From contig JANYCY010000060.1 in the NCBI GenBank assembly GCA_025360045.1, positions 1-35,187 of the forward strand: a stretch of DNA of 35,187 nucleotides. The letters are read 5' to 3'. Positions 11,245 to 35,187 of this stretch are shown here, in pieces. Each line of letters opens with the position of its first letter. Position 1 is the first letter of the stretch. Under the pieces are notes generated by a model that was not told where the DNA came from, made no database searches, and was given only the letters and a program-made list of their open reading frames with translations. The translations under genes and the position numbers were made by a program. The DNA comes from Janthinobacterium sp. (GTDB lineage Bacteria > Pseudomonadota > Gammaproteobacteria > Burkholderiales > Chitinibacteraceae).

Positions 11245-11247
11245 CAC

Positions 11248-11608: not shown

Positions 11609-11610
11609 GT

Positions 11611-12966: not shown

Positions 12967-13517
12967 TCTGCGTCTCCTTCACTATCTTTATCTCCACACG
13001 GCGTCATCCCCGAATGCTCTTGTCGGGGATCCAGTGGCTCTACTGGATTCCCGACAAAGGCATTCGGGAGTGACGAAGTAGCAGCATTCGCGGCAGCGCC
13101 GCCATCACCACACAACGGCGTCATCCCCGAGAGCTCTTGTCGGGGATCCAGTGGCTCTACTGGATTCCCGACAAAGGCATTCGGGAATGACGAAGTAGCA
13201 GGATTAGGGTTGATGTGCTGTGGCACTGCGCCAGCAATTTCCGGCCATAGGTCTAGCCATTGCGAGTTTTGTTTTTCTATCAGACGCAGCTTCCAGTCTC
13301 GATTCCATTTTTTTAGCTGTTTTTCTCGGCGAATGGCGCTTTCCATTGTTTCGTGTTGCTCATACCAAACCAGTGTTTTTACGCTGTGTTGCTGGGTAAA
13401 CCCCTCAACAACGCCTTCGCGATGCTGCCAGATGCGCTGGATCAAATCGGAAGTCACGCCAATATAAAGCGTGCCATTGCGCTGGCTGGCGAGGATGTAA
13501 ACGGCTGGGGCTTTCAT
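12963..13517 (-). CDS. GIY-YIG domain protein with repeat-derived C-terminal tail
   Basis: 184 aa from the ATG at 13517, whose A-T-G-A overlaps the preceding stop. Residues 1-95 are a compact GIY-YIG domain: VYILASQRNGTLYIGVTSD at the start, then IWQHREG, YEQHETMESAIRREKQLKKWNRDWKLRLI and a final WLDLW. This is the small stand-alone family (UPF0213/YhbQ-like), whose usual length is about 95-100 aa. The extra ~85 residues come from two in-frame copies of the 74-bp palindromic repeat (13119-13192 and 13002-13075), each giving FVGNPVEPLDPRQE...SGMTP. The protein is inside the hsd operon, but family members are common passengers; a role in restriction is unproven. Confidence 0.85.
   Translation of the reverse strand: MKAPAVYILASQRNGTLYIGVTSDLIQRIWQHREGVVEGFTQQHSVKTLVWYEQHETMESAIRREKQLKKWNRDWKLRLIEKQNSQWLDLWPEIAGAVPQHINPNPATSSFPNAFVGNPVEPLDPRQELSGMTPLCGDGGAAANAATSSLPNAFVGNPVEPLDPRQEHSGMTPCGDKDSEGDAE
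13002..13075. repeat. palindromic repeat family 1, copy 3 (inside the GIY-YIG gene)
   Basis: A 74-bp copy, translated in frame in the GIY-YIG protein tail. It is 117 bp from copy 4 and almost identical to it. Confidence 0.92.
13119..13192. repeat. palindromic repeat family 1, copy 4 (inside the GIY-YIG gene)
   Basis: A 74-bp copy in the same orientation and the same reading frame as copy 3. The GAAGTAGCA flank is shared by both, which points to a local duplication of repeat plus flank. Confidence 0.92.
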
Positions 13518-13534
13518 GCGATCATCCTTTTCGC

Positions 13535-13642
13535 CGTCATTCCACGGATGGCGGGAATCCAGTTGCACTGGCCGTTATTTACACGCAATTTTATCGAGTA
13601 ATAAACCCTCTGGATTCCCGACAAAAGCACTCGGGAATGACG
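13535..13642. repeat. palindromic repeat family 1, copy 5, interrupted
   Basis: Begins CGTCATTCC and ends CACTCGGGAATGACG like the other copies. About 35 bp of unrelated sequence sits in the middle (around 13568-13605), so this copy is 108 bp. Confidence 0.75.
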
Positions 13643-13652
13643 CCGCAGAGTG

Positions 13653-13673
13653 AGTGTCACCAGTGGTGACACT
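13653..13673. repeat. perfect 21-bp palindrome
   Basis: AGTGTCACCA and TGGTGACACT are perfect complements around a single central G. It is followed by TTTTA on the plus strand. It lies inside the DUF1016 remnant. It could be a plus-strand terminator or an operator left by an insertion. Confidence 0.6.
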
Positions 13674-13794
13674 TTTACCGGATTGAGTACCATGCGTTCA
13701 AATAGCGTGGTGTTGACGGCGCGGTAGGCTTGCTGACGCGCAGCGTCGATTAGCCCGACAATTTCGGCGAAATCAGGCGTATTGATTGGCTCGC

Positions 13795-16137
<2,343 letters not shown>

Positions 16138-21163: not shown

Positions 21164-21916
21164 TCAGGTCAAATCATCTAAAAGCGCCGATGGCGGCAAG
21201 AAGGCTTTCCAGAATGCCACATCATATTTCCACCAAGCATGCCCCCCCATCGGGGCCGTGCCGCCATTCACCTTATAATAATAAGCAGGCTTTAATTCCA
21301 GAGAAAATAAAGAAGCTGTAATTTCATTAGGAATAATAAAATCGGCAGACAAAGCCCCCATATAAGAAAAAAACAAATCTTCACTAGAGCCTGTTTTTAA
21401 AAATACAGCAATGGCATCTGGAAATTCATTTAATAAGGCCATACATTTACGCGTTCTGCGCAAGCTTAAGCCGCCATTGCCCACATACACTTTAATCGCC
21501 TTGCCAAAATCGCCTTCAAATCGGCCAAGATTTACAAACAATTCATTACCATCCGGCCACGGTGCACCAATATAATCAAAAGGCTTACTTATCCATAAAT
21601 CCAGATCATCGCGTAAAACAATGGCATCTGTTTGTAAAATTAAAATAAAATCATAAGTATCAAACCGCTGGTAAAAATAATCCGCCAACAGTAATCGATT
21701 GTAGCCAGCAATACTCTCGAAATAGTGATCTTCAAAAAAAGAAAAGGGAACATCAGGATAGTTTTCTAAATAGTACGCACGCTCAATATTTTCTGGTGCA
21801 ATAAATTGCACCTTACGTCCCATAAGTGCATGCAAAGAAACACCCAGAGAATAATTTTCTATTTCTGTAAGCGTATATTTATATAGCGGAATAAGTACAA
21901 TAACTTGTTCTTGCAT
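21164..21916 (-). CDS. DUF5672 family glycosyltransferase-like protein
   Basis: 250 aa, with an AAAGGG site 7 nt before the ATG. The pattern is a GT-A-like fold: N-terminal VIVLIPLYK, ILILQTDAIVLRDDL (a D-x-D-like acidic motif around 95-104), FDYIGAPWPDG and GNGGLSLRRTRKC (~150-162), and a later SSEDLFFSY. These are the conserved blocks of the DUF5672 family, found in polysaccharide and glycan clusters. The donor and acceptor are unknown. It is the last gene of the minus-strand export/sugar run, 42 nt after fdtB. An intergenic region full of repeats follows. Confidence 0.8.
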   Translation of the reverse strand: MQEQVIVLIPLYKYTLTEIENYSLGVSLHALMGRKVQFIAPENIERAYYLENYPDVPFSFFEDHYFESIAGYNRLLLADYFYQRFDTYDFILILQTDAIVLRDDLDLWISKPFDYIGAPWPDGNELFVNLGRFEGDFGKAIKVYVGNGGLSLRRTRKCMALLNEFPDAIAVFLKTGSSEDLFFSYMGALSADFIIPNEITASLFSLELKPAYYYKVNGGTAPMGGHAWWKYDVAFWKAFLPPSALLDDLT

Positions 21917-21958
21917 TAAAAAACCCTTTTGACCAGGCTAATATGCCAAATTAAAAAA

Positions 21959-23059
21959 TCACACTACACATGCCCTTACTGCGGCAATCACCTGATTCAC
22001 ATCGCTTTGGCTCATTGTTGGGCTTAAAGGCAAACTCAGCACTTGATGATGAATTTTTTCAGCAATGGGAAAAGATAATTGATTAAACGTTTTATAAGCA
22101 CTTTGCTGATGAGGTGCAATTGGGTAATGTATCAAGGTAACAATGCCTAGCTCTGCAAGCTTACTTTGCAATTCATCTCTTTTTTCAGAGCGCAGCACAT
22201 ACAAATGCCAGACGGGTGAAGTACCCTCAGCCACAATGGGTAAATGCAATGGCAAGCCCTGCAATCCTTGAGTATATTGCTGCGCAATCCGGCAACGCAG
22301 CTGAGTTTCTATATCTAAATGAGGAAGCTTCACACCAAGCAATGCCGCTTGCAATTCATCCAGACGGCAATTAAAGCCCTGTACATCATTATAATATTTA
22401 ACTTTTGATCCGTAATTTAAAAGCATCCGCACTTTTTCTATCAGCAAATCATCATTGCTGGTAATCGCCCCGGCATCGCCCAATGCACCTAAATTTTTTC
22501 CCGGATAAAAACTAAATCCTGCTGCATGGCCAAGCCCCCCTACTTTTCTGCCTTTATATAAGGCACCATGCGCCTGCGCGGCGTCTTCAATTACTTTTAA
22601 ATTATACCGATTGGCAATAGCCATAATTGCATCCATGTCAGCAGGTTGCCCATACAGATGCACGGCGATAATCGCTTTGGTCCGCGGCGTAATGGCCGAT
22701 TCAATTAAAGCAGGACTAATATTATAGCTGGATTCAAGCGGCTCTACCGGTACAGGCACCGCCCCCGCATAAGTCACCGCCAGCCATGTGGCAATATAGG
22801 TATTAGAGGGCACAATTACCTCATCACCCGCCCCGATTCCAAAAGAACGTAAAATTAAATGCAAAGCATCAAGGCCGTTACTCACCCCGGCGCAATGCTT
22901 TGTTTCGCAATAGCTGGCGAAAGATTTTTCAAAGAGATTTAATTCTTCTCCCAGAATATAGCGGCCTGAATCCAACACACGCTCAAATGCCTGAATTAAT
23001 TCAGCACGATGCAGTGCATTAATCGATTTCAAATCCAGAAAAGGAATATTATTTTTCAT
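21959..23059 (-). CDS. fdtB: DegT/DnrJ/EryC1/StrS sugar aminotransferase, FdtB-like
   Basis: 366 aa, PLP-dependent. Visible: [15 protein letters not shown] at the start; [30 protein letters not shown]; the [18 protein letters not shown] block; and the PLP-binding lysine region [19 protein letters not shown] (Lys near 185). These match the 3-aminotransferases that convert dTDP-3-oxo-6-deoxyhexose to the 3-amino sugar with glutamate (FdtB for Fuc3N, QdtB for Qui3N). Its ATG overlaps the fdtC stop by one base (TAATG). FdtB and QdtB cannot be told apart reliably by eye. The symbol is given for the family role. Confidence 0.88.
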
Positions 23060-23775
23060 TATTCAAGTGTTTTCACAAAACGGGCAGGCACACCTGCGAC
23101 TAATGTTTTTTCTTTTACATCTTTAGTCACAACCGAACCAGCGCCTACCGTAGCGCCTTGCCCAACCCGAATAGCCGGCAATAATGATGCACCCACACCA
23201 ATCACCACATGATCTTCAATTGTGGGGCCAACCACATGCGATGAATATCCTTCTCTTACCGCATTATCATTGGTGGTACCTACATGCAGGCTGATAAATA
23301 CATCATCCCCAATCACGGCATTACCCGTAATATGGCTGCAATCCATAATTTTAGTACGGCTGCCAATTTTAGTATTGTAATTCACCGTCACATACCGGCT
23401 TAAAATACAAAAACTGCCCACACTGCATTTCTCTCTGATTGAAGCCCCATCACCCAGCAGAGTATTATTGCCGATAATTACATCATAAAAAATAACCGAA
23501 TTGGGACCAATAGAGCACTCGTCTCCAATTTGGACCACCTTATCAAATTCCGGCATACGTGCCAAAGCACCTGCTCCCTTAGGCTCTTTGCCAATAAAGG
23601 CCCCCGGAAACACCTCTACAGCACGCCCTATATTTACCCCATCAGCAATAACCACATGGGGATGAATCACACTATCATCGCCAATCACACACTCGCCAAT
23701 CACAGCAAAAGGCATGACTGTGACATTAGCCCCTAATTTTGCTTTTTCTGAAATAATTGCAGAAGGATGAATCAT
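23059..23775 (-). CDS. fdtC: left-handed beta-helix acyltransferase, FdtC/QdtC-like
   Basis: 238 aa made almost entirely of hexapeptide repeats (for example [39 protein letters not shown]), which form a trimeric left-handed beta-helix. Such enzymes move an acetyl group from acetyl-CoA to an amino sugar. The position between the ketoisomerase and the aminotransferase gene points to 3-N-acetylation of dTDP-3-amino-3,6-dideoxyhexose. A likely catalytic His lies in the [15 protein letters not shown] region. Its start overlaps the fdtA stop as ATGA and its stop touches the fdtB start, so the three genes are tightly coupled. Confidence 0.88.
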
Positions 23776-24179
23776 GATGTGGCACTCACGGCTTGATTAG
23801 TAAATTCTTCATAGCTACGAATATAGTCTGACTCATCGTAATAATCATCGGTTAATACCAATAAAACACAGTCATCACTAAAATCATACATTTCCCGCCA
23901 AATCATCGACTCAATTAATAAGCCTTGTGCCGGATTGTCTAATAAAAGCTCAATTTTTTCCCTGCCATCATCCAGCAAAAAACGGCAAGACCCCCTCAAT
24001 GAAATTGCAACCTGCTTCAATGTCTTGTGTGCATGAAACCCGCGGTGAACGCCTTCTTTTGTGCCAAACAAATAATAAACCCGCTTAATTGGAAAAGGGA
24101 TGTTCTTTTGCTCTTCGAGCGAAACCAATGAGCCCCTATCATCCCCATGCTTTTGTAGTTGAATAAACTTAATTTGCAT
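23772..24179 (-). CDS. fdtA: dTDP-4-oxo-6-deoxyglucose 3,4-ketoisomerase, FdtA/QdtA-like (WxcM cupin)
   Basis: 135 aa from the ATG at 24179, with AGAGG just upstream; the longer frame start at 24260 is Cys-rich and unsupported. A single cupin domain has DDRGSLVSLEE, VYYLFGTKEGVHRGFHAHK (catalytic His pair around 49-51) and a late DYYDESDYIRSYEEF. The RGxHAHK motif is the hallmark of FdtA/QdtA-type ketoisomerases. These isomerise dTDP-4-oxo-6-deoxyglucose to the 3-oxo sugar, the first committed step to dTDP-Fuc3NAc or dTDP-Qui3NAc. The supply genes rmlA and rmlB are not in the window. First of the three coupled sugar genes. Confidence 0.9.
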   Translation of the reverse strand: MQIKFIQLQKHGDDRGSLVSLEEQKNIPFPIKRVYYLFGTKEGVHRGFHAHKTLKQVAISLRGSCRFLLDDGREKIELLLDNPAQGLLIESMIWREMYDFSDDCVLLVLTDDYYDESDYIRSYEEFTNQAVSATS

Positions 24180-24259
24180 AATAACCTCTGCTTCAAAAAA
24201 TACCGGATCCGCATAAGTAAAAACTGAGCAAAAACAAACTGGCAAACTACAAAATCGCA

Positions 24260-25351
24260 CTAGGCGTGATAAGCACTCAGATAAGAATCGTGAAATGCAT
24301 AATCATTTTTTAAAATACCATCAACAGCACGCTGCACACGTAATAAAATATCATTACAGCGTGTATCTGCATGATGTCTTGCCAAACCATCAAGCACTCT
24401 TTGAATCAAACCGTTTTCACCACTTTCATTAAATGCACTGATGGCTGATTTTACAATTTCATGAGGCTCTACAAGACCATTTAAATCATAATATAATGGC
24501 GCAGTGCCTAAATAAGCCACTTCAGGCATATTTTGATAGAAAGCAGGTAAAATAGGAATACCCCCCGTCAGCAGGGCGTTATATACGCGAATAGGAACCC
24601 CCCCTAAGACAGGCATAATCCAGTGTGTTTTATACCCCCCCCATTCTTTCATATTTTCTAAATCAGAACGTTCTTTAAAATCATTGTTTGCAAATGCAAC
24701 TGTTGGAAAATGCTGCATCACCGAAGCAATTGCGCGATTACGCCTGGCATACTTTTCATAGTGCACATGCATACCAAAAGGCCCGTCTGCTCTTTCAGAT
24801 AATAATAGTTCCAGATTATTTAATACAAAGGTTCTGGACCACTGATGAACACAGGCAAAAACAGGGCCGATTACGCAGGGGTTAAAATGCGATAAAGCAA
24901 AAACGGTTTCTGATGATGCTGATATATAAACATCACAATGAATGGCACACAAAGCGCTCATTTGCAGCCAATGCTGGGAATCCCAATCCCATATTACAAA
25001 AAGAGCCTGTGGGTTTTTATTATAAAAATCAATATACGCGGGTAAATCTTTGCCTATATCATTATTCAGTAAAATAAACACAGCGCCTTTGGGGATATTC
25101 ACAGGCGGTTTATGTAAAAAATCGCTGGCCAGATGTACAAAATGCACATCTTCGCTCATTGATCTGGCATGCAAAAGATGAGCACCTAAATACACCGTAC
25201 TTATTTTTGAAAAATCAGTAGCCGTTAATTTTTTAATTAAATCATTCTTTTTATTAAACAGCAGTGAATCCAGCAGAGGGTCCTGCAAAAGACTTGCAAA
25301 TTGTCCTGATGTTGCAGCCAGCTTTTCAATCAGCTGATAAATTTCATTCAT
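24260..25351 (-). CDS. putative glycosyltransferase (GT-B-like)
   Basis: 363 aa from the ATG at 25351, which has GGAGGG 3-4 nt upstream; the longer frame would overlap the methyltransferase gene. No signal or membrane segment. C-terminal features recall GT-B enzymes of the CgeB/YkvP kind: GVPIRVYNALLTGGIPILPAFY (about 276-297), followed by EPHEIVKSAI. In such proteins this stretch binds the sugar-nucleotide donor. The N-terminal half (VYLGAHLLHARS...VIWDWDSQHWLQMSALCAI) fits a Rossmann-like acceptor domain. The assignment rests on pattern and context between methyltransferase and nucleotide-sugar genes; the substrate is unknown. Confidence 0.6.
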   Translation of the reverse strand: MNEIYQLIEKLAATSGQFASLLQDPLLDSLLFNKKNDLIKKLTATDFSKISTVYLGAHLLHARSMSEDVHFVHLASDFLHKPPVNIPKGAVFILLNNDIGKDLPAYIDFYNKNPQALFVIWDWDSQHWLQMSALCAIHCDVYISASSETVFALSHFNPCVIGPVFACVHQWSRTFVLNNLELLLSERADGPFGMHVHYEKYARRNRAIASVMQHFPTVAFANNDFKERSDLENMKEWGGYKTHWIMPVLGGVPIRVYNALLTGGIPILPAFYQNMPEVAYLGTAPLYYDLNGLVEPHEIVKSAISAFNESGENGLIQRVLDGLARHHADTRCNDILLRVQRAVDGILKNDYAFHDSYLSAYHA

Positions 25352-25395
25352 AAGCCCTCCCGAACCACGATGAGCGTGTTTTTTATCCACATCTG

Positions 25396-26256
25396 TTAAA
25401 AGGCGTTTTTTCCATTCAGAAATGGGTTTGTATCTGTTCGTAAAAAACGCCATTCAGGATTTTGCTGAGCCAGCATATCAAACAGCTCTGGCGTCACTGT
25501 ATTTTTAAAAAATACCGCCTGCACATAGCTGGCCACTACCTCACCCGCATGCATGGCCGTGGTTAATTGCTCGGTGCGTGTACGGGTGGATTCCCATATG
25601 GGATCGCCATCATTACACATGGCAAATTCGCAGCCCGGTGTATAGACATCCATCATTTTTTTACTGGCAATGCCTCTTATATTTAAACCATAGGCAATTT
25701 TTTCTAATTCACGGGTGGAATACTGATAAACATAATTACCAACCGATTCATAATGAGGCTGGCTCTGATCCACGCGGCAGGGATAATCTACCCATGGGTC
25801 TTGTGGCTCGATTACCACCACGCCGTAGCGCGCCACGCGAAACATTTCATAAATTGCCGCATAGGGCCTGCTCATATGGTGCAATGCTTCTTTACATAAA
25901 ATAAAATCAAATGAATTATCGGCAAAACTGAGTGATTCTGCATTTTCAATGGATATATTCTGAATAAAACCGGCGGCTTTGGTTTCTGCCAGTACAGCGT
26001 CATCCAAATCAGTTGCTAATACTTCGCGATAGCCTGCCTGCAATAAACGCCATGCATCGTAGCCTGCACCATCGCCCACGGTAAGCCATGAAAAATCTTT
26101 TAAGCCGCCTAATACTTCAAATACCGCCGCATATAAACGGGTTTGCCGCCAATAGCCCACGCTGCTTGATGTCCACCATGAATCGTATAAGGTGCGGTGA
26201 TGTGCATCGGTCATAAATTCAGCCCAATGCTTTTCATGAATCTCATTCATCGACAT
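25396..26256 (-). CDS. class I SAM-dependent methyltransferase
   Basis: 286 aa. SAM-binding motif I reads LTVGDGAGYDAW (~58-69). A motif II acidic loop VLATDLDD, a motif near IENAESLSFADNSFDFILCKEALHHM and the Methyltransf_11 order are clear. The C-terminal extension (YESVGNYVYQYSTRELEKIAYGL...) is specific to a subset found in glycan gene clusters. It probably methylates a sugar or a lipid-linked intermediate. A second ATG follows two codons in; an AAGG lies about 9 nt upstream of the first. It is followed after 44 nt by the putative glycosyltransferase. The substrate cannot be read from sequence. Confidence 0.85.
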   Translation of the reverse strand: MSMNEIHEKHWAEFMTDAHHRTLYDSWWTSSSVGYWRQTRLYAAVFEVLGGLKDFSWLTVGDGAGYDAWRLLQAGYREVLATDLDDAVLAETKAAGFIQNISIENAESLSFADNSFDFILCKEALHHMSRPYAAIYEMFRVARYGVVVIEPQDPWVDYPCRVDQSQPHYESVGNYVYQYSTRELEKIAYGLNIRGIASKKMMDVYTPGCEFAMCNDGDPIWESTRTRTEQLTTAMHAGEVVASYVQAVFFKNTVTPELFDMLAQQNPEWRFLRTDTNPFLNGKNAF

Positions 26257-26303
26257 AGCGGCAGCCTTTTATCTCATCATCAATTCAAAATGCAGCGATT
26301 AAA

Positions 26304-26798
26304 TTATTCTGGAATTTCTACTTTTTGCATCACCGTAAGCAAATGCGGGCCACGCCATTCTTGTAGTTTAATTTCAAATGCGCCATTAAACCCATAGCCT
26401 GAGGCCCAGCGATTTACATTATCAAAATAGGCTTGAAATGTTTGATCGGTAATAATATTAACGTGGGTTGGATCGCGAAAAGCTTCGGGATGAGGATAAG
26501 CTGGAGTGAAAGATAAAAACTGCCCGCCTACTTTAAGCACGCGATAAATCTCATTCATTAATTCAACAAAGGCATTTCTGCGATGCGGCGCGTAAATAAT
26601 TCTGGGGATATGCTCTAAAAAATCATGCGCAGTGACGTATTCAAAATAATCATTTTCAAAGGGAATAGGTTCAATCACCAAATCTGCCCGTTTTATATTG
26701 GCATCTAAATCCTCCCTCACATCAATTCCGAATAATTCATCGGCATTAAATGGATTTTTGGGTGTAGGCCCACAGCCCAGATCTAAACTTCGTGTCAT
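26304..26798 (-). CDS. small class I SAM-dependent methyltransferase
   Basis: 164 aa, short for the fold. Motif I is LDLGCGPTPKNPF at residues 5-17 and acidic motif II is GIDVRED; ADLVIEPIPFENDYFEYVTAHDFLEHI and YRVLKVGGQFLSFTPAYPH follow. A GGGGAG site lies 4 nt before the ATG. It resembles the small methyltransferases attached to LPS and glycan clusters. It stands directly before the other methyltransferase, so the pair may decorate the same sugar at different positions. Confidence 0.83.
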   Translation of the reverse strand: MTRSLDLGCGPTPKNPFNADELFGIDVREDLDANIKRADLVIEPIPFENDYFEYVTAHDFLEHIPRIIYAPHRRNAFVELMNEIYRVLKVGGQFLSFTPAYPHPEAFRDPTHVNIITDQTFQAYFDNVNRWASGYGFNGAFEIKLQEWRGPHLLTVMQKVEIPE

Positions 26799-26853
26799 AT
26801 TCTCCCCTTTGCTTGCGCGTATTCTTTCACTATAGGATTTACATAGGCTGATG

Positions 26854-28767
26854 TCATTTAATTGACAGCCCTAATTCATCATTAAATGCGCCCAGCTCTT
26901 GAGTTCTCCACATCGCGATGTAAGCACTTTCCAAGTTAAAACAAAGCCCTTCTGTATCAAACAAGGCAAAGCTGGCTTTATTGGCGGCAATTCGGGCTTT
27001 AAATTCGGCCAATTGTTCGGGTTGCGTCGCCAGTTGCAAGGCCAGCGCTTCATACTCGGCGATTGAGTGAGTAGCCAGTTCCGGCACACCCATAGCATTG
27101 AGCACGCTACCCGCTACTCGGGATGGGAAGGAATTACCCATATAAGTCACCACCGGCAGCCCAGCCATCAGGGCATCGGCGGCAGTGGTGTGGGCGTTGT
27201 AAGGATGGGTATCTAAGAAGAGATCGGCCTGCCGGTAACGGGCCAGATGGTCTTCGACCAGCGGCACTCGGCTGGCGAAGACCAGCCGATCAGGATCGAC
27301 GCCCCTTACCTCGGCTTCTTTACGCAGATTACCTTGCGAGGTGTTGCCACGTGACATCAGCCATAGCACACTGCCCGGCACTTGTGTAAGCAGCCGCATC
27401 CAAACATCAAACACAGGTGGAGATATTTTGTAATCGTGGCTAAAGGAACAAAACACAATGCCGCTATCGGGCAAGCCACATTCGCTGCGTGTAGGGGTGC
27501 GATCAGCAATTTGTACGCTACTGTCAGTCGGTAAATAGGTGTCTGGCAGGTAGACCACTTTTTCGGTGTAATACTGTTGTTGCTCAGGCGGGATGATATA
27601 GCGATCGGCGATGATGTAATCAATATAATCAGCGCCCATTGTGCCGGGGTAGCCTAGGTAATTCACTTGAATAGGCGCGGGTCTAAAAGAAAGAATATCG
27701 GTGCGAGTGTCCGACGTATAGCCACCTAAATCAACGATGATATCGATTTCCATATCATGCAGCATTTGCGCAACTTGCTCTGAGCCCATTTCCCTTACAT
27801 CAATAAATTGATCAAATGCTTTAATCATGCGTGCGCGTAAGCGGCTTTGATCGTCAATACCCAGCGAAATTGCAATGGTTTCAAAACGGGATTTATCATG
27901 ATGCTCAAATACGCCTGCCATTAAGTGGCCAACGGGGTGTTCGCGCAAATCAGGGGAAAGATAAGCCAATTTAATTTTCTTATGCCGATATCGCTCACCT
28001 TGCCATAGTGATTTGGCATTTTTTGGGCAATATTGGTTAGCAAAGATTCTAGCAGCCAATAAATGATCGGCGGCATTATCCGAGGCCGACATAAAGGCCA
28101 GCGATTTACAAGTGCGCTCGCCTTTTCTGATTCCATCAACAATTTGCTGAGTAAGCAAATCAAAATCAGTCCAATCGCAAATATGCATGCGCTCGTAAAA
28201 CAACAAACCTAGACCATAATTATAATTGGGATCAATTTGAATCAGTCGCTGAAAAATGGCAATAGCCTGTTCACTTTGCTTAAATTCTGTCAGCAAAATA
28301 CCGCTATTGCCTAAGGCGGCCACATGATCAGGATCAACTCTTAATATTTTTTGAAAGCGCTCTAATGCTTCTAAATGCCGATACATATTTCTAAGTAGCA
28401 CACCACTATTAAGTAATACGCTGACATCATCGGGCTGTATTTCTAATGCGGCATCAAAGCTTTTTAATGCGTCTTCCCGATTGCCCATGGCTTGCAAGAT
28501 AGAGCCATGTAGATAGTGCAGGGGTGCAAATTGAGGGGCGGCTTCAATCCCCCGTTTTGTAAGCTGTAATGCCAGTATTTTGTCACCAGAATTAAGTGCA
28601 ATCAGTCCCAAGGAATACAAAGCGGCCGCGTTATTAGGATCTTGATCCAAAATCTCAATAAACAAACTACCCGCCGCCGCTATTTCACCTTGATTTTGTA
28701 ATTCTATTGCTTTGATGAGTTGGTCTGCAACGGGCATTTTTGGGGCTCTTTTTTTTGAAGGCTTCAT
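26854..28767 (-). CDS. TPR-containing GT41 O-linked N-acetylglucosaminyltransferase-like protein
   Basis: 637 aa from the ATG at 28767. A GTG five codons earlier and an ATG ten codons later are alternatives, and none has a clear ribosome site. Residues ~20-200 are tetratricopeptide repeats (AALYSLGLIALNSGDKILAL, VLLNSGVLLRNMYRHLEALE, AALGNSGILLTEFKQSEQAI). Residues ~250-630 match the GT41 SPINDLY/OGT domain: HPVGHLMAGVFEHHD, IDIIVDLGGYTSDTR, PIQVNYLGYPGTMGADYIDY, FCSFSHDYKI and DLFLDTHPYNAHTTAADALMAGLPVVTYMG. GT41 enzymes glycosylate Ser/Thr of cytoplasmic proteins. The gene lies 49 nt behind the secretion gene hlyD; the Thr-rich repeat protein further upstream is the obvious candidate acceptor (inference). 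Confidence 0.92.
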   Translation of the reverse strand: MKPSKKRAPKMPVADQLIKAIELQNQGEIAAAGSLFIEILDQDPNNAAALYSLGLIALNSGDKILALQLTKRGIEAAPQFAPLHYLHGSILQAMGNREDALKSFDAALEIQPDDVSVLLNSGVLLRNMYRHLEALERFQKILRVDPDHVAALGNSGILLTEFKQSEQAIAIFQRLIQIDPNYNYGLGLLFYERMHICDWTDFDLLTQQIVDGIRKGERTCKSLAFMSASDNAADHLLAARIFANQYCPKNAKSLWQGERYRHKKIKLAYLSPDLREHPVGHLMAGVFEHHDKSRFETIAISLGIDDQSRLRARMIKAFDQFIDVREMGSEQVAQMLHDMEIDIIVDLGGYTSDTRTDILSFRPAPIQVNYLGYPGTMGADYIDYIIADRYIIPPEQQQYYTEKVVYLPDTYLPTDSSVQIADRTPTRSECGLPDSGIVFCSFSHDYKISPPVFDVWMRLLTQVPGSVLWLMSRGNTSQGNLRKEAEVRGVDPDRLVFASRVPLVEDHLARYRQADLFLDTHPYNAHTTAADALMAGLPVVTYMGNSFPSRVAGSVLNAMGVPELATHSIAEYEALALQLATQPEQLAEFKARIAANKASFALFDTEGLCFNLESAYIAMWRTQELGAFNDELGLSIK

Positions 28768-28831
28768 CAAGCATGTACTCACAATAAAATAGAGCGGGCT
28801 GTAAATCCAATTTTATTTTTTATTTGTATCA

Positions 28832-30178
28832 TTATGGCTCTCTGATCGCTTCTTTTATTGCTTTTGTCAGCGGCCAAATTAGGTAAGAAATAACCGTGCG
28901 TTTGCCTATGACAATTTCGGCAGATAAAGTCATCCCTGGCAATAAGCGTGATTTACCAGTCATTTTTTTAAGCTTGTTATCGCCAAAATCAATGCGTGTG
29001 ATATAAAAATTATCTGCGCCACGCGGGGCAGTTTCATTTCTAAATGAATCTTCGCTAATCGTTCTCACCTTTCCATCCAGCATGCCATGTTTTTGAAATG
29101 GGAAAGTATCTAGCTTCATATGCACCGGATCGCCTTCTTTAATATAACCGATATCCAGTGAATCGATCTTTGCCTCAACTTCCAGCACCGCGCCTAATGG
29201 TACTAAAGTAAAGAATTGCTCTGCTTCTCTGATAATAGAGCCTTGCGACAACTTAGCAATATCCAGCACAACCGCATCCACTGGCGATATTAAAGTCACC
29301 ATTTGCCGACGTTTTTCTGATTTTTGTAATTGCTCATTTAAGGAGTCGCGCTCACGTGTACCGGCCAATAAATCTTCCATCACTTTTTGTCGCCAGCCAT
29401 TTGAAAACGCCGCTTTTTCTGCTTGTAATGCACCCACTTCTTTTAATAGCTCAAATTCTTTATTTTGTACTTGCCCTAAATCGCGCTCGACTTCTAATCG
29501 CCGATCTCTGACTTCAAGTAAACGCAATTTGGAATCGTATTGTTGAGCCGCAGCTTTTTCTTGCATGGCTTCAATCTCAGTCATTGATTTAAGCCGCTTG
29601 CTGAGTACCTGATGATCATTGCGATTGGTTTGAATCGTCGCCGATAGCCTCGCTAAGTTTTGATCTATTTTGGTCGCTTGGGCGCGGAAATTAGCTTGCC
29701 GCTCATTTAAGATCTGCGCTTGCAGTACCGTGTCCGCATCGGTATGAGGGTTGCTTTTGGTTTTGCCGGTTAATTCAGCTTGCAAGCTGCTAATTTGAGT
29801 TTCCAAGCTTTGTAAGCGTGAGCGCAACTGCGCATCGTCAGCCTGTGCAAAGGTGGGATCGAGCATGGCGAGCCGTTGCCCCTTATGCACCACCTGCCCC
29901 ACCCTTACATCAATGCGCTGAATAATCGAAGTTTCAAAAGGCTGTACCACAATATTGGGCGAGGGATTGACCAAACGCCCTTGGGCTATCACGACTTGCT
30001 CTACTTCTGAAAAATTGGCCCATAACAAAAAGCTGCTAAATGCGAGTAAAAGCACAAGCAAGGTGCTGCGCACATAAAATGGCAGCTGCCTTTGCTCAAT
30101 TTCATCCGCATCGGGCAGAAAATCGATCGCAACTGACTCGGCTTTCGCTTTTACAGGTGGCTTGTTTGTTGATGCCAT
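28832..30178 (-). CDS. hlyD: type I secretion membrane-fusion protein (HlyD family)
   Basis: 448 aa. Short cytoplasmic N-terminus, one membrane helix at ~34-54 (STLLVLLLAFSSFLLWANF), then a long periplasmic part. It has a lipoyl/barrel half (VEQVVIAQGRLVNPSPNIVVQPFE), a coiled coil of ~170 residues (Gln/Arg/Glu-rich, ~105-285) and the returning barrel (LISPVDAVVLDIAKLSQGSIIREAEQFF). The close LLPGMTLSAEIVIGKRTVISYLIWPL is typical of HlyD/LapC. It links the ABC exporter to an outer-membrane TolC protein, which is not in the window. Its start overlaps the end of hlyB by 28 nt, so translation is probably coupled. Confidence 0.95.
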   Translation of the reverse strand: MASTNKPPVKAKAESVAIDFLPDADEIEQRQLPFYVRSTLLVLLLAFSSFLLWANFSEVEQVVIAQGRLVNPSPNIVVQPFETSIIQRIDVRVGQVVHKGQRLAMLDPTFAQADDAQLRSRLQSLETQISSLQAELTGKTKSNPHTDADTVLQAQILNERQANFRAQATKIDQNLARLSATIQTNRNDHQVLSKRLKSMTEIEAMQEKAAAQQYDSKLRLLEVRDRRLEVERDLGQVQNKEFELLKEVGALQAEKAAFSNGWRQKVMEDLLAGTRERDSLNEQLQKSEKRRQMVTLISPVDAVVLDIAKLSQGSIIREAEQFFTLVPLGAVLEVEAKIDSLDIGYIKEGDPVHMKLDTFPFQKHGMLDGKVRTISEDSFRNETAPRGADNFYITRIDFGDNKLKKMTGKSRLLPGMTLSAEIVIGKRTVISYLIWPLTKAIKEAIREP

Positions 30179-32298
30179 AGGTGTTGGTAAGTCTCACAGC
30201 GGGTTAAGAGCTCTTCGTGTCGGCCGCTATCCATGAGCTGGCCTTGCTGCATCACTAAGATGGTGTGCGCATTTACTAAGGTCGACAGGCGGTGGGAAAT
30301 CATCACTACGGTACGGCCCACCGCAATTTTGGATAGATTCTTAATAAATATGGCTTCGCTTTCTGGATCCAGCGCACTGGCCGCTTCGTCCAAAATTAAG
30401 ATTCGCGGTTTGGCCAGCAGCGAGCGTGCAATCGATAAACGTTGTTTTTGCCCGCCAGATAAATTAGAAGCGTTTTCTTCGAGCATGGTGTCGTAGCCCT
30501 GCGGCATGCGCTCAATAAATTCATCTGCCCCTGCCGCCTCGGAAGCCGCAACAATCTCTTCAAAAGAGGCATCGGGCTTGGTGGCCACCAAGTTTTGTCG
30601 GATGGTGCCTCGGAATAAGAAGTTTTCTTGCAAAACCACGCCAATTTGCCGCCGCAAATGGGGCAATTCAATTTCACGCGCGTCCATGCCATCAAAGCGC
30701 ACAATCCCGCCTTGTAAGGGGTAAAGCCCTTGAATCAGCTTGGTAACCGTCGTTTTACCTGAGCCACTGCGCCCAACAATCCCGACGACCGCCCCCGATG
30801 GAATAGTAAAGCTGGCGTTATTTAATGCTGTAGCCGTAGCGCCGGGGTAGCGAAAACTCACCTCATCAAAGGTAATCTCACCCACTAATTGTGGCCGTAA
30901 TCCGCCAGCGCCCACGCGCCCTTCTGGCGCACGATTCATCACTTCGCCCATCATGCGCACCGACAATGCCGTTTCTTGGTACTCATTCACGAGTCCCACC
31001 ATGGCGATCAAAGGCTGGACCACGCGGCCAGACATCATTTGAAAGCCAATTAAGGCCCCCACCGTCATGGTCTGATCAAATACATCTTGTGCGCCAATCA
31101 CAATCACCACCACGGGCAATAACTTACCCAAGAAATCGGTAACCGCATTACCAACAATCGAGATCTGCCCCACTTTAAAATGTAAGGAAATCGCTTCTGC
31201 CGAAAGCTGGTCCCACGCCCTGCGCTGCTTAGGCTCAATCGCCAAGGCTTTAACCGTGCGAATACCATGAATGGTTTCAACCATCATGGCTTGCCGCTGG
31301 CCTTCTGCGCCATATAGTTTATTTAAACGTCGCTGATAAGTAGGCACCATCGCCGCAATAATTCCCGCAATCAGCAGGGTAAAAAGCAATACAATCATTG
31401 ATAGCTTGCTTGAATACGAAAACAACACGGGAATAAAGATAATCAAAGAAATTAAATCTAGCGCAGTAAAAAAGATCCGCCCTGTTAAAAAGCTACGAAT
31501 TTTTTCTAATTGCTGCATATGTCGGGCAACAACCCCCGCTGAATTGCTTTCAAAATAATCAATAGGTAATGAAAGTAGATGGCCAAATACGCGGCGCGTT
31601 AAACGCATATCAATTTTATTGGTTGCCGCTAAAGTCAAGATCTGGCGTAGAAATCCAAACGCTGTATCAAAGATAAGTGCAATCACCATTCCTGCGGCCA
31701 GCACCCAAAGTGTGGTCGCACTTTGATGGGTGAGCACCTTATCGATCACTAATTGAAAAAATATTGGAGACGCCAAAGAAAGAAATTGCATCACAATGGC
31801 GGCAATAAAAATATCGCGAAAGGCACTGCTTTGCTTGGCGATTTCTGGAATAAACCAAGTTAATCCGAAGGGCTGATTAGGGTCGGATATTTTATGCTCG
31901 CGCTTGGCAAAAAGAACTTCGCCTTCCCAGCGATTACAAAAAGTGCTTTGGTCTTCTAATATCACCTCAGATTGACTCGCGTTTGGGTCAATCAAGGCAA
32001 TTTTCACCGCGCCTTCAGCATCAGGGCGAACGCCAACCACAATAACGGCACGATCAAATGCCGTGCGTGCAATCAACGGAAAAACGCCACCTTGGGCAAT
32101 TAAGCTCGCCCAAGTAAGCTTATCTGCTCTTGCTTTTAAGCCTATATCATTAGCAATCCGCAATAAAACAGAATTACTTGGCTCTTCATTACCCAAAGCA
32201 TATTCATCAACCAAACGCTCAGGATTGATTTGCAAGCCATGATGCTGAGCAATGGCAGCCAAACATTGAATAACGGTATGTTGAGCTTTAGCTGTCAT
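30151..32298 (-). CDS. hlyB: type I secretion ABC transporter (HlyB/RtxB family) with C39-like domain
   Basis: 715 aa. An N-terminal C39-like domain (~1-130) lacks the catalytic cysteine block: the expected D-C-G is replaced by T-V-I before CLAAIAQHHGL. It therefore serves as a substrate-binding dock, as in HlyB, not as a protease. Six-helix membrane domain at ~155-430. ATPase domain: Walker A GRSGSGKT (~508), signature LSGGQKQR (~617), Walker B ILILDEAASALD (~634-645), and switch His in MISHRLSTL. It exports unfolded proteins with C-terminal signals. The repeat-protein gene upstream on the same strand is the likely substrate. The start is preceded by an AT-rich leader with no strong ribosome site. 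Confidence 0.96.
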   Translation of the reverse strand: MTAKAQHTVIQCLAAIAQHHGLQINPERLVDEYALGNEEPSNSVLLRIANDIGLKARADKLTWASLIAQGGVFPLIARTAFDRAVIVVGVRPDAEGAVKIALIDPNASQSEVILEDQSTFCNRWEGEVLFAKREHKISDPNQPFGLTWFIPEIAKQSSAFRDIFIAAIVMQFLSLASPIFFQLVIDKVLTHQSATTLWVLAAGMVIALIFDTAFGFLRQILTLAATNKIDMRLTRRVFGHLLSLPIDYFESNSAGVVARHMQQLEKIRSFLTGRIFFTALDLISLIIFIPVLFSYSSKLSMIVLLFTLLIAGIIAAMVPTYQRRLNKLYGAEGQRQAMMVETIHGIRTVKALAIEPKQRRAWDQLSAEAISLHFKVGQISIVGNAVTDFLGKLLPVVVIVIGAQDVFDQTMTVGALIGFQMMSGRVVQPLIAMVGLVNEYQETALSVRMMGEVMNRAPEGRVGAGGLRPQLVGEITFDEVSFRYPGATATALNNASFTIPSGAVVGIVGRSGSGKTTVTKLIQGLYPLQGGIVRFDGMDAREIELPHLRRQIGVVLQENFLFRGTIRQNLVATKPDASFEEIVAASEAAGADEFIERMPQGYDTMLEENASNLSGGQKQRLSIARSLLAKPRILILDEAASALDPESEAIFIKNLSKIAVGRTVVMISHRLSTLVNAHTILVMQQGQLMDSGRHEELLTRCETYQHLWHQQTSHL

Positions 32299-32587
32299 TA
32301 TAAATGGCAGTGATCAGTGATGGGATACTAAGAGAAATAGTCATCTTATCGCTATTTTAATTATAGATAAGTAGTACCGTATAGCATTTCTTACTTGATT
32401 ATAACTTAGGGTTGAAAAATTATATTTTATTTTTAAGAAACACTGATCTATTTTGTATATGCGCAAAGCACCGGCCTGTTGTAAGCAAGAGGCAAATCCC
32501 ATACTCACATTGTATTCCTGACCAAAACATCAGTGAATATCGATTTAACACACATCTGCATAAAAATATTCTCACCGTTACAGCCAA
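32299..32587 (-). promoter_or_regulatory. AT-rich upstream region of the hlyB run, with two TATAAT boxes
   Basis: No gene. On the minus strand, TATAAT occurs at 32419-32424 and 32398-32403, upstream of hlyB. Neither has a convincing -35 at 16-18 bp, so promoter use is uncertain. This gap, with the terminator behind the repeat gene, suggests that the exporter run is transcribed separately from the repeat protein. Confidence 0.35.
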
Positions 32588-32622
32588 TAAAAATAGGCAA
32601 GACCTTACGGCCTTGCCTATTT
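32588..32622 (-). terminator. intrinsic terminator of the repeat-protein gene
   Basis: AAATAGGCAAG-GCC pairs with GGT-CTTGCCTATTT around a GTAA loop (about 14 bp). The minus strand continues TTTTATT. It begins 21 nt after the stop codon of the giant gene. Confidence 0.85.
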
Positions 32623-32642
32623 AATCACACCCAAAACGGCGT

Positions 32643-35187
32643 TTATTTAATCGCCAATATTCCAGTTACATTGGTATTAGCCAAGCCATTCAATTTAAGC
32701 TGCTGATCAGTTGCGACCAGTGCATCAGCGGCAGATCCAACAAACTTACCATTTGCATCAAATTGTTTCAGCAAATCGCTCATTTGTCCGACCGTGCTAT
32801 TTGCAGCCGCCGCTAAAGCCCCACCCGCTAAATCAACCGGCAATTTATTCGCCTCACTCGTCGCAGCCTGTTTACTACCCTCCTCGAATGCGGCAATGGC
32901 TTGTACCAAATCAACCACTCGTGTGCGCATATCAGGCTCGGCTGCAGAATTTTGCGCTACAAACCAAACATCAGCAGCAGCATGGCTAGATCCATCTGTA
33001 CTCTCATACGTTGATTTCAGCCCAATAAAGTTGCCATTATCCTTCTCTGCCGTTTTGCTTACATCCAAGTTTAGCTTGGCAATATCAAGAGACGCCAAGG
33101 TCTTCAGCTCATCCGCTTGGCTTACCCCATCCGCGTTGGCATCCAGCCAAACACGCAAGTCATTAAAGCCATCGTCGTGCAGATCGACCACGCCATCCTT
33201 ATTACTGTCCATTTCAGCCAGCGCAGCATAGCCATCGGCCGCTTTCGCCCCCGTATTCAGCACCGTAGAAGTCCCGAATAGCTCCTTACCATCATTAATC
33301 ACACCATCATGATTCCGATCCACAACCAACAAACCATCTCCACTGCCCACCCAACCGGTGTTGGTTTTTTCGCCGTTGGCAAACAAATCAAACTTCACGC
33401 CATCAGAGATACTTGCCGTATCTATTTTCCCATTCTTGTTCAAATCAAGAATCAGCGGGCTACCCAAGGCAAGATGAGAGATTTGATCCGTGGTAAACGA
33501 TTGAATCTGCGCCGTGGTCATTTGCATGACCTGCGTCGTGGTAAACGCAGCCACTTGCGTTGTCGTCAAGGCCTGGATCTGAGTCGTTACGAGCGCCGCA
33601 GCTTGACTTGTGGTCAAGGCCGCGATCACTTTTGTACTCAAAACAATCAAATCTGTGGTTTCCAAGGCCGCAATACTATCTGTGGATAGGCCCACAATCT
33701 GCGCTGAAGTCAAGACCGCCGCTTGATCCGTCGTAAAGGCGACCGCCTGACTTGTTGTTAACGCGCTCAATTGCCTTGTTGTTAAACCTGCAATCGCAGC
33801 GGAGGTCAAGGCAGCAAAGTCTGTTGTTTCAAGTGCTGCAATATTGTTGCTCGATAAGGCAGAAACTTGGCTAGAGCTAAGCACAGCAGCTTGGAACGAT
33901 GTCAGCGCCGCAATTTGAACCGTTGTAAATCCATTCGCCAAGCTGGCCGTGGTTAATACACGGACTTGATCTGTTGTCAGATTGTTCACTTGCACGGTGG
34001 TCAAGGCATTCACTTGCGCGGTGTTGAGCGCCGCAATGCCGCTGGTTTTAAGCACCACTAAATCACGGGTTTCGAGCGCCGCAACACTCGTGGTTGAGAG
34101 TGCGGCAATCTGGGCCGAGGACAATGTAGCGGCTTGATCGGTGGTCAGGGCAGCAGTTTGATCGGTCGTCAACACACGAATCTGGCTGGTTGTCATCGCG
34201 CCTACGGCGGTGGTGGTCAACACAGCTAAGTCGCGGGTTTCGAGGGCGGCGATATTGCTGGTGCTCAGGGCCGCCACTTGTTTGGACGTCAGCTCAACAG
34301 CTTGAGCTGTGGTCAGCGCAACCGCTTGATCGGTAGTCAAACCGGCCAAGGAGCTGGTTGTGATATTGATGACTTGATCGGTGGTTAGATTGGCCACTTG
34401 ATCGGTGGTCAAGGCTTTAACTTGCGCACTCGAGAGTGCGGCAATGGCCAGCGTGCTGATCACGGCCAGATCGCGGGTTTCTAGCGCAGCGATATTGGTG
34501 GTGCTTAGCCCAGCGACTTGGCGAGAAGTCAGTACGGCAGCTTGTGCTGTAGTCAGCGCTGCAATTTGATCTGTAGTCAGGCCCAACAGCGATGCGGTTG
34601 TTAATTGAACAGCCTGATCAGTCGTTAAATTAGCCACTTGCGCCGTCGTTAAGGCTCTGACTTGGTTACTTGAAAGCACGGCAATCGGCAAGGTGGTCAC
34701 AACGGCCAGATCACGGGTTTCGAGTGCGGCCACATTATTAGTTGAAAGAGCCGCAACCTGACGGGTTGTCAGCACGGCAGCCTGTGCCGTATTCAAAGCG
34801 ACGATTTGATCTGTGGTCAGGCCACTTGAAAACGCCGCAGTATTGAGCGCCACAACCTGATCTGTAGTCAGGTTATTCACCTGAGCAGTAGTCATGGCAT
34901 TGATTTGCGCGGTATTGAGCACCGCTATACCGCTCGTTTTCAGCACCACCACATCACGCGTTTCAAGCGCAGCAACACTGCCCGTTGAGAGCGCGGCGAT
35001 TTGTGAGGACGATAAAGTGGCGGCTTGATCAGTGGTCAGCGCAACCGCCTGATCACTGGTCAGCGCTCTAACTTGGCCGGTCGACATGGCGGCGACGGCA
35101 GTTGTGGTCAGCACGGCAAAATCACGCGTTTCAAGGGCTGCGATATTGGTCGTTGAAAGTGCCGCTACTTGGCGGGAAGTCAGCTCG
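32643..35187 (-). CDS. giant octapeptide-repeat secreted protein with EF-hand-rich C-terminus (5' end outside window)
   Basis: The frame is open to the window edge: 847 residues are visible and the start is beyond 35187. The visible N-terminal ~570 residues are an unbroken array of 8-residue units of the form (A/V/G)-L-(T/S)-(T/S)-x-(Q/x)-(V/I)-A, about 71 copies. The next region has calcium-binding loops: DLNKNGKID, DRNHDGVIND, DSNKDGVVD, DANADGVSQADE. It follows the GSPLILDLN...GWVGSGDGLLVVDRN...DGKELFG pattern of RTX-type exported proteins. The last ~100 residues have no cysteine and end GILAIK, as expected for an uncleaved type I secretion signal. Likely a surface adhesin, matrix or S-layer-like protein exported by the HlyB/HlyD pair. 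No classic GGxGxDxUx repeats are visible. Confidence 0.85.
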   Translation of the reverse strand, partial: ELTSRQVAALSTTNIAALETRDFAVLTTTAVAAMSTGQVRALTSDQAVALTTDQAATLSSSQIAALSTGSVAALETRDVVVLKTSGIAVLNTAQINAMTTAQVNNLTTDQVVALNTAAFSSGLTTDQIVALNTAQAAVLTTRQVAALSTNNVAALETRDLAVVTTLPIAVLSSNQVRALTTAQVANLTTDQAVQLTTASLLGLTTDQIAALTTAQAAVLTSRQVAGLSTTNIAALETRDLAVISTLAIAALSSAQVKALTTDQVANLTTDQVINITTSSLAGLTTDQAVALTTAQAVELTSKQVAALSTSNIAALETRDLAVLTTTAVGAMTTSQIRVLTTDQTAALTTDQAATLSSAQIAALSTTSVAALETRDLVVLKTSGIAALNTAQVNALTTVQVNNLTTDQVRVLTTASLANGFTTVQIAALTSFQAAVLSSSQVSALSSNNIAALETTDFAALTSAAIAGLTTRQLSALTTSQAVAFTTDQAAVLTSAQIVGLSTDSIAALETTDLIVLSTKVIAALTTSQAAALVTTQIQALTTTQVAAFTTTQVMQMTTAQIQSFTTDQISHLALGSPLILDLNKNGKIDTASISDGVKFDLFANGEKTNTGWVGSGDGLLVVDRNHDGVINDGKELFGTSTVLNTGAKAADGYAALAEMDSNKDGVVDLHDDGFNDLRVWLDANADGVSQADELKTLASLDIAKLNLDVSKTAEKDNGNFIGLKSTYESTDGSSHAAADVWFVAQNSAAEPDMRTRVVDLVQAIAAFEEGSKQAATSEANKLPVDLAGGALAAAANSTVGQMSDLLKQFDANGKFVGSAADALVATDQQLKLNGLANTNVTGILAIK
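33477..35187 (-). repeat. 24-bp (8-codon) tandem array with 7- and 10-unit super-repeats
   Basis: About 71 units. A distinctive ALET(R/T)D unit recurs at unit numbers 3, 10, 20, 30, 40, 47, 57 and 64, counted from the window edge. The spacing is therefore 7, 10, 10, 10, 7, 10, 7. The 7-unit blocks share one internal order (start VLTTTAV, then AM[S/T]T) and the 10-unit blocks another (with an NLTTDQV unit and then a GLTTDQ/GFTTVQ unit). One unit in two of the 10-blocks has an extra residue. The array continues beyond the window. Confidence 0.9.

What the first reader, a model, noticed from the sequence alone, without database searches (positions are those of the whole stretch)
21164..35187. 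A possible dedicated sugar-synthesis, O-glycosylation and type I export system for a giant Thr-rich repeat protein
One strand carries, in order of transcription, the giant octapeptide-repeat protein, hlyB, hlyD, a TPR-GT41 O-glycosyltransferase, two methyltransferases, a putative glycosyltransferase, the coupled FdtA/FdtC/FdtB set for a dTDP-3-acetamido-3,6-dideoxyhexose, and a DUF5672 glycosyltransferase. The substrate presents Thr/Ser pairs every 8 residues (LTT, LST, LSS) over at least 570 residues. GT41 enzymes modify Ser/Thr in the cytoplasm, before export through an HlyB channel. The simplest combined reading is that the repeat is decorated in the cytoplasm, the glycan is extended or methylated, and the chain is then secreted. 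Gene content is seen; the functional link is inferred from order and composition.
Basis: partly seen in the sequence, partly recalled or inferred. Interest (0 to 1): 0.78.

Follow-up and report, generated by a model that had tools for sequence, protein, structure and literature searches.

The report
Giant repeat protein with dedicated glycosyltransferase
A giant, threonine-rich bacterial repeat protein sits beside its own exporter and beside an enzyme related to the sugar-attaching enzyme OGT, and in many different bacteria this kind of repeat protein and enzyme lie close together, which suggests that the enzyme coats the repeat protein with sugars before export.

Summary
The gene content is confirmed: a PF20080 (ALTTAQ) repeat protein, hlyB-like, hlyD, TPR-GT41, two methyltransferases, an unassigned protein, FdtA, hexapeptide acetyltransferase, DegT aminotransferase, DUF5672. 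GT41 occurs in 75 of 75 ALTTAQ genomes searched, against 80 of 150 genomes of the order. The two lie within 20 kb in 46 of 66 genomes where both were placed; about 1.5 expected by chance. The window's GT41 falls in a fully supported clade of 9, all from ALTTAQ genomes. 'GT41 modifies the repeat protein before type I export' is thus a comparative-genomic prediction, no longer a guess from one locus; no chemistry is shown. The sugar genes are different: FdtA plus FdtB lie beside 6 of 44 linked loci examined, a sister locus has a CDP-dideoxyhexose set, and no dTDP-glucose 4,6-dehydratase passes the family cut-off in this genome, so the 'dTDP' sugar is not supported. Closest precedents: FlmG, HMW1C, serine-rich-repeat adhesins.

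The parts
32643..35186 (-). C-terminal 847 aa of a giant ALTTAQ (PF20080) octapeptide-repeat protein, cut at its 5' side by the contig end; 572 aa of repeat and a C-terminal domain of 275 aa with Asp-rich EF-hand-like motifs and no RTX nonapeptide GGxGxD
   Evidence: predicted 8-residue short-helix solenoid, low confidence
30151..32298 (-). HlyB-like type I secretion ABC exporter with a C39-like N-terminal domain
   Evidence: PF00664, PF00005, PF03412; TIGR01846 630.3 bits, under its cut-off; 71-75% identical homologues in 4 of 44 linked loci examined
28832..30178 (-). HlyD periplasmic adaptor, overlapping hlyB
   Evidence: TIGR01843 308.5 bits over cut-off
26854..28782 (-). TPR + GT41 (OGT/SPINDLY-type) glycosyltransferase; the only GT41 gene matched in this genome
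   Evidence: PF13844 and TPR families; aligned to OGT, XcOGT and SPINDLY; the genome's 2 matched stretches are both in this gene
26304..26798 (-). SAM methyltransferase MT1
   Evidence: PF08241; 75% and 70% identical homologues in L193 and L162
25396..26256 (-). SAM methyltransferase MT2
   Evidence: PF08241; homologue in L193, 34%
24260..25453 (-). unassigned protein 'GTx' (glycosyltransferase by context only)
   Evidence: no family match; homologues 52% in L193, 36% in L170, 29% in L175
23772..24260 (-). FdtA-like 3,4-ketoisomerase
   Evidence: PF05523; best PDB relative 2pa7, dTDP-6-deoxy-3,4-keto-hexulose isomerase (160.9 bits), ahead of QdtA (114.3 bits)
23059..23775 (-). hexapeptide acetyltransferase (FdtC/QdtC-like)
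   Evidence: best PDB relative QdtC 3fs8
21959..23059 (-). DegT/DnrJ sugar aminotransferase (FdtB/QdtB-like)
   Evidence: best PDB relatives 2oga (transaminase) and 3frk (QdtB)
21164..21916 (-). DUF5672 protein, possible glycosyltransferase
   Evidence: PF18922 150.2 bits; homologues 56% in L193 and 54% in L162

Best explanation
This is a surface or extracellular glycoprotein factory. The giant ALTTAQ protein presents Ser/Thr pairs every 8 residues. While it is still in the cytoplasm the TPR domain of the GT41 enzyme holds the repeat, and its catalytic half puts a first sugar from a nucleotide-sugar donor on Ser/Thr. In this locus (and in Azospira) the neighbouring genes make an amino-deoxyhexose and, with GTx, DUF5672 and the methyltransferases, extend or cap that sugar. 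HlyB-HlyD with an unlinked outer-membrane channel then exports the chain. Shown here: gene content, repeat periodicity, the link between ALTTAQ proteins and particular GT41 clades, and recurring neighbourhoods. Inferred: the modification itself, its timing, the sugar, and that this exporter carries this substrate. The core module is ALTTAQ + GT41, often with a type I-like exporter; the sugar cassette is exchangeable.
For: GT41 in 75 of 75 ALTTAQ genomes against 80 of 150 genomes of the order; the 5 ALTTAQ genomes in that set of 150 all have it. 18, 34 and 46 of 66 genomes have both within 3, 10 and 20 kb; expected 0.34, 0.83 and 1.5. By record titles (classes assigned by me, not looked up) the 46 are 22 beta-, 15 alpha- and 6 gammaproteobacteria, one acidobacterial MAG and two of unstated class. 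Tree: the window's GT41 is in a clade of 9, support 100, all from ALTTAQ genomes; clades of 43 and 6 (support 100 each) also hold only ALTTAQ genomes; 29 GT41s from ALTTAQ-negative genomes lie outside all three. In 5 genomes one GT41 is beside ALTTAQ and a different one within 20 kb of a flagellin-domain hit. Azospira oryzae repeats the cassette on one strand: GT41-MT2-MT1-(4 more genes)-FdtA-FdtB-GTx-DUF5672-two ABC exporters-ALTTAQ. In this genome one flagellin (C69) has its own sugar and glycosyltransferase genes beside it, without GT41.
Against: No biochemical data. In 17 of 66 genomes ALTTAQ and GT41 are on different contigs, and in 3 they are 24-27 kb apart. 7 of the 65 GT41s from ALTTAQ genomes fall among the control rows of the tree, one of them (L029) lying beside an ALTTAQ gene. 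The genome's second ALTTAQ gene (3572 aa frame, C79) has no GT41 or HlyB/HlyD homologue within about 18-19 kb on either side. A type I-like exporter part is seen in 24 of 44 regions of at most 20 kb, most at 22-49% identity. The ABC protein misses its family cut-off. The genome also has flagellins (7 matches), known substrates of such enzymes elsewhere, and 4 of 43 ALTTAQ-linked GT41s are within 20 kb of a flagellin-domain hit.
Confidence: 0.68

Rival explanations
1. The GT41 is an FlmG-like flagellin O-glycosyltransferase that happens to lie in the same island as the repeat protein.
For: FlmG, a TPR + GT-B enzyme, glycosylates flagellins in the cytoplasm in Caulobacter (passages of PMC7591256). 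This genome has 7 flagellin-domain matches and one GT41 gene. G131 has ALTTAQ and GT41 inside a flagellar cluster.
Against: No flagellin-domain match lies on the window's contig. The flagellin on C69 has its own neighbouring sugar and glycosyltransferase genes; the surroundings of the other flagellins were not examined. Only 4 of 43 ALTTAQ-linked GT41s lie within 20 kb of a flagellin-domain hit; 5 genomes have a separate flagellin-side GT41.
Confidence: 0.12
2. GT41 does modify the ALTTAQ protein, but the Fdt-like, DUF5672, GTx and methyltransferase genes serve another glycan (LPS, capsule or a second protein) and are neighbours only.
For: FdtA plus FdtB accompany 6 of 44 linked loci examined. 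The genome has no RmlB over cut-off. GT41 enzymes of known type use UDP- or GDP-sugars (recalled), not dTDP-sugars.
Against: Short gaps and overlaps on one strand from hlyB to DUF5672. The same accessory genes recur with the same GT41 clade in Azospira (MT1 75%, GTx 52%, DUF5672 56%, FdtB 59%) and, in part, in Sphaerotilus (MT1, DUF5672) and a Nitrosomonadales MAG (GTx).
Confidence: 0.35
3. The genomic link reflects shared 'surface islands' with no enzyme-substrate relation.
For: Adhesins, glycan genes and exporters often sit in variable islands (recalled); no experiment links the two; no other giant exported protein was tested as a control.
Against: The pairing spans three proteobacterial classes and several GT41 clades, often with the two genes adjacent.
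Confidence: 0.13

Closest known systems
FlmG of Caulobacter crescentus (PMC7591256; start of abstract and passages seen)
   Same: Cytoplasmic TPR + GT-B enzyme; the TPR half binds the substrate; O-glycosylation of a protein that is then exported.
   Different: Substrate is flagellin and the donor pathway is pseudaminic acid; here a repeat protein with a type I-like exporter and a catalytic half of GT41/OGT type.
HMW1C and the HMW1 adhesin (starts of abstracts of PMC3012730 and PMC3983070 in a search listing)
   Same: GT41-family enzyme (family placement recalled) dedicated to a large adhesin with its own secretion system.
   Different: N-linked on Asn and two-partner secretion; no OGT-like TPR array (recalled).
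Serine-rich repeat adhesins with accessory Sec (title and start of abstract of PMC5578698 in a search listing)
   Same: Repeat adhesin, intracellular glycosylation, dedicated exporter; O-acetylation as a further modification.
   Different: Gram-positive, SecA2/SecY2 route; non-GT41 enzymes (recalled).
RTX adhesins and BapA-type type I substrates (search listings; passages)
   Same: Giant protein with a type I exporter.
   Different: Here no GGxGxD nonapeptide; Thr-rich octapeptide repeat, predicted short helices; paired with GT41.

Membership tests
ALTTAQ repeat proteins (PF20080) | Match over the curated cut-off | tested here: met
   408 bits against 26.4, 21 stretches
GT41 (OGT/SPINDLY type) | PF13844 over cut-off with N-terminal TPRs | tested here: met
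   288.4 bits and TPR families; alignment to OGT, XcOGT and SPINDLY
GT41 (OGT/SPINDLY type) | O-glycosyltransferase activity and donor | not testable with these tools
   The HP..H, YKI and HTT..D stretches of OGT are kept in the alignment (their catalytic roles are recalled); activity needs an assay
HlyB-type T1SS exporter | Curated NCBIfam cut-off for TIGR01846 | tested here: not met
   630.3 bits against 725.55; LssB model 521.8 against 693.1. Described as HlyB-like, not filed as a member
HlyD T1SS adaptor | TIGR01843 over cut-off | tested here: met
   308.5 against 208.65
RTX protein | GGxGxD nonapeptide repeats | tested here: not met
   None in the 847 aa present; the N-terminal part of the gene is not in the window
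dTDP-Fuc3NAc pathway (Fdt) | FdtA-type ketoisomerase, aminotransferase and acetyltransferase | tested here: met
   (by family and best solved relative, not activity)
dTDP-Fuc3NAc pathway (Fdt) | dTDP-glucose 4,6-dehydratase in the genome | tested here: not met
   Best match 105.2 bits against 365.1, and that gene is a CDP-glucose 4,6-dehydratase; the assembly is a draft; RmlA was not searched
FlmG-type flagellin glycosyltransferase | Flagellin as substrate / flagellin linkage | tested here: inconclusive
   Flagellins exist in the genome but on other contigs

The most novel reading that the evidence does not exclude
ALTTAQ proteins are an undescribed class of Gram-negative, mucin-like O-glycoproteins. 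Across alpha-, beta- and gammaproteobacteria they are modified in the cytoplasm by dedicated GT41 clades, separate from the flagellin-side GT41s, and exported by type I-like systems; the deoxyhexose cassette beside them is swapped between loci (Fdt-like here, CDP-dideoxyhexose in a sister), so the coat sugar varies while carrier and attaching enzyme stay.
Probability: 0.5. Interest if true: 0.82.

Novelty: new variant of a known kind. Interest (0 to 1): 0.7.

Why it matters
Bacterial GT41 genes are common (80 of 150 genomes of this order) but few have a known substrate (recalled). A partner within 20 kb of them in 46 of 66 genomes is a direct, testable substrate assignment, and would make a Gram-negative counterpart of the serine-rich-repeat adhesins. 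No paper in the held library holds the word ALTTAQ or the terms 'PF20080' or 'ALTTAQ repeat'; searches for a GT41- or O-glycosylated type I-exported adhesin showed no such system in the rows listed (one search found no paper). The library lacks most subscription journals, so this is not proof that nothing is in print.

Tried and rejected
Structure of GTx: mean pLDDT 36.4, discarded. Structure of the repeat protein: mean pLDDT 54.1; 10-residue blocks of the repeat part 49-82, with a largely regular ---HHHHH pattern of period 8; the C-terminal domain under 50. Foldseek against PDB gave nothing at E <= 0.001; the weak high-probability hits are mesothelin (rank 3: E 0.046, probability 1.0, TMt 0.39); not relied on. 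End overlap of contigs C90 and C71: none exact of 15 bases or more, so they are only thought to be one gene. A B. cenocepacia paper that holds both an OGT and BapA: the passages list them as separate loci under one regulator. L211 is GalE and L212 looks like ArnA by eye, so neither supplies RmlB. The idea that the Fdt genes define the system was dropped.

Caveats on counts. Of the 75, 9 were dropped before the distance count: 8 without an ALTTAQ place at the strict cut-offs used (G531, G541, G552, G560, G577, G579, G584, G585) and G547 without a listed GT41 place. Place lists were cut and cut-offs were strict, so distances are upper bounds; two genomes (G521, G550) took their ALTTAQ places from the same contigs (G058, G129). 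The chance figure uses listed genes at uniform positions and is approximate; relatedness of the genomes is not removed. The 150-genome control is one order, the ALTTAQ set is not. The 29 control GT41s in the tree were among the higher-scoring, not random. Of the 53 'linked' tree rows, some are second genes of one locus (L150, L154, L155, L185, L188), some are near-copies, and three come from other searches (L024, L029, L242). One search covers 44 of the 46 linked genomes, in regions of 4.1-19.9 kb.
Full report
What is in the window. The window is contig C90 (1-35187) of a 4.02 Mb, 97-contig genome. From 35186 down to 21164 the gene-sized frames named here are on the minus strand: the C-terminal 847 residues of an ALTTAQ repeat protein (PF20080), a HlyB-like ABC exporter, HlyD, a TPR-GT41 enzyme, two methyltransferases, a protein without family (GTx), FdtA, a hexapeptide acetyltransferase, a DegT aminotransferase and DUF5672. 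From hlyB to DUF5672 the genes overlap, abut or are separated by 42-55 bases (coordinates), which fits one transcript; 344 bases separate the repeat gene from hlyB. The octad period of Ser/Thr is far beyond shuffled sequence (117 against a mean of 44.6). The repeat gene is cut by the contig end; contig C71 starts with an N-terminal ALTTAQ fragment in the matching direction, probably the same gene, but no exact overlap joins them.

Enzyme identities. The GT41 aligns over TPR and both catalytic halves with the OGT 110 kDa subunit (E 2.4e-99), and also matches XcOGT and SPINDLY. FdtA's best solved relative is 2pa7, a dTDP-6-deoxy-3,4-keto-hexulose isomerase, ahead of QdtA; the aminotransferase is nearest 2oga and QdtB, the acetyltransferase nearest QdtC. 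The ABC protein does not reach the curated HlyB cut-off but has 71-75% identical homologues in 4 of 44 linked regions (L184, L186, L189, L191), and HlyD 55-60% in 6 of 44; in L189 and L191 ALTTAQ is followed by hlyB as here.

An exact-pattern scan for ALTTAQ coding DNA, blind to GT41, gave 80 loci, 75 of whose genomes were searched. GT41 was found in 28 of 28 and 47 of 47 of them. In the window's order 80 of 150 genomes have GT41 and 5 of 150 have ALTTAQ, the window's own included, all 5 with GT41. In the class set 4 of 369 have ALTTAQ at E <= 1e-8, again with the window's own, so the family is rare. Positions give 18, 34 and 46 of 66 genomes with both within 3, 10 and 20 kb, against 0.34, 0.83 and 1.5 expected for random placement. 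Seventeen genomes have them on different contigs, three at 24-27 kb. Five GT41s from such unlinked or farther genomes (L203, L205, L244, L247, L248) fall in the ALTTAQ clade of 43, so they may act at a distance.

Dedicated GT41 clades. In a quick maximum-likelihood tree of 94 GT41 catalytic domains the window's enzyme is in a clade of 9, support 100 (SH-aLRT), with those of Aquabacterium (two), Sphaerotilus, Azospira, Rhodoferax, a Nitrosomonadales MAG, an uncultured betaproteobacterium and Desulfamplus; all 9 genomes carry ALTTAQ, though in Desulfamplus the two genes are not on one contig. Clades of 43 and 6 are also made only of ALTTAQ genomes, and 29 GT41s of ALTTAQ-negative genomes lie outside all three. 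Against this, 7 of 65 GT41s from ALTTAQ genomes fall among the controls: six are not ALTTAQ neighbours (L243, L246, L249, L250, L251, L252), and L029 is one. Label changes are 7 against a shuffled mean of 25.0 (ALTTAQ genome or not) and 7 against 30.7 (linked or not), with none of 500 shuffles as low; relatedness inflates this. Five genomes have one GT41 beside ALTTAQ and another near a flagellin-domain hit, which looks like a split by substrate.

The sugar cassette. Of 44 fetched linked regions, HlyB or HlyD homologues are in 24, FdtA in 6, FdtB at 45% identity or more in the same 6 (betaproteobacteria by record title), FdtC in 1, DUF5672 in 2, GTx in 3, MT1 in 2 and MT2 in 1. Azospira oryzae (L193) carries most of the window set: GT41, MT2, MT1, FdtA, FdtB, GTx, DUF5672, two ABC exporters and ALTTAQ on one strand. 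In a Nitrosomonadales MAG (L170) ALTTAQ and GT41 are followed by glucose-1-phosphate cytidylyltransferase, CDP-glucose 4,6-dehydratase, RfbH and an RmlC-type epimerase, and farther on a radical-SAM B12 protein and a GTx homologue. So the sugar set is swapped within one GT41 clade. In the window's own genome no RmlB passes the cut-off; the best match is a CDP-glucose 4,6-dehydratase on C69, in an island beside a flagellin gene with its own glycosyltransferase and methyltransferase genes. The nucleotide that carries the window's amino-sugar is therefore open.

How it most likely works. Cytoplasmic O-glycosylation of the repeat by the GT41, optional extension or methylation by cassette enzymes, then type I-like export. 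Shown: sequence content, period, linkage, phylogeny, recurring neighbourhoods. Inferred: catalysis, donor, order of steps, exporter-substrate match. The model of the repeat (about one 5-residue helix and a 3-residue turn per octad, Ser/Thr at the turn) is low-confidence and only hints that the hydroxyl residues recur at equivalent places.

What is known. FlmG shows that a TPR + glycosyltransferase protein can bind and glycosylate its substrate in the cytoplasm (start of abstract and passages). HMW1C shows a dedicated enzyme for an adhesin, and serine-rich-repeat adhesins show intracellular glycosylation followed by a dedicated exporter (starts of abstracts in search listings). I found no paper on ALTTAQ proteins in the held library. 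I rate it a new variant of a known kind.

Noticed in passing
G000:C79, about 50.5-61.1 kb (L019, L020): A second giant ALTTAQ gene (3572 aa open frame) in the same genome, C-terminal part 56% identical to the window's, with no homologue of the window's GT41, exporter or sugar genes found within about 18-19 kb on either side.
   Followed up: partly
L253 (G000:C69:133000-152900): Probable flagellin glycosylation island: flagellin gene followed by a 1508-aa protein with RgpF and GT2 domains, a rhamnosyl O-methyltransferase-like protein, DegT, hexapeptide transferase, RmlC-type epimerase, CDP-glucose 4,6-dehydratase and glucose-1-phosphate cytidylyltransferase.
   Followed up: partly
L170:1599-9185 (Nitrosomonadales MAG): A CDP-dideoxyhexose set (cytidylyltransferase, dehydratase, RfbH, epimerase) and a radical-SAM B12 protein after ALTTAQ and GT41: an unusual sugar, perhaps methylated by a radical enzyme.
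   Followed up: partly
G131:C11, about 46-52 kb (L028, L029): An ALTTAQ gene (971 aa) and a GT41 gene lie together inside a flagellar gene cluster, with a flagellin about 12 kb away; this GT41 is not in the ALTTAQ clades.
   Followed up: no
window 6477-16137: By eye a type I restriction-modification locus (hsdM, hsdS, hsdR) with a GIY-YIG-like frame (12963-13568) and a Fic-like gene (9912-10934) between its genes.
   Followed up: no
window 3860-6330: By eye an IS66-type transposase pair; the upstream frame holds a Ser/Thr-Pro run coded by a 6/12-base tandem repeat at 6057-6129.
   Followed up: no
model of window 32643-35186: Weak fold resemblance of the octapeptide solenoid to mesothelin (Foldseek rank 3: probability 1.0, E 0.046, TMt 0.39; TMt up to 0.45 in another chain).
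   Followed up: no
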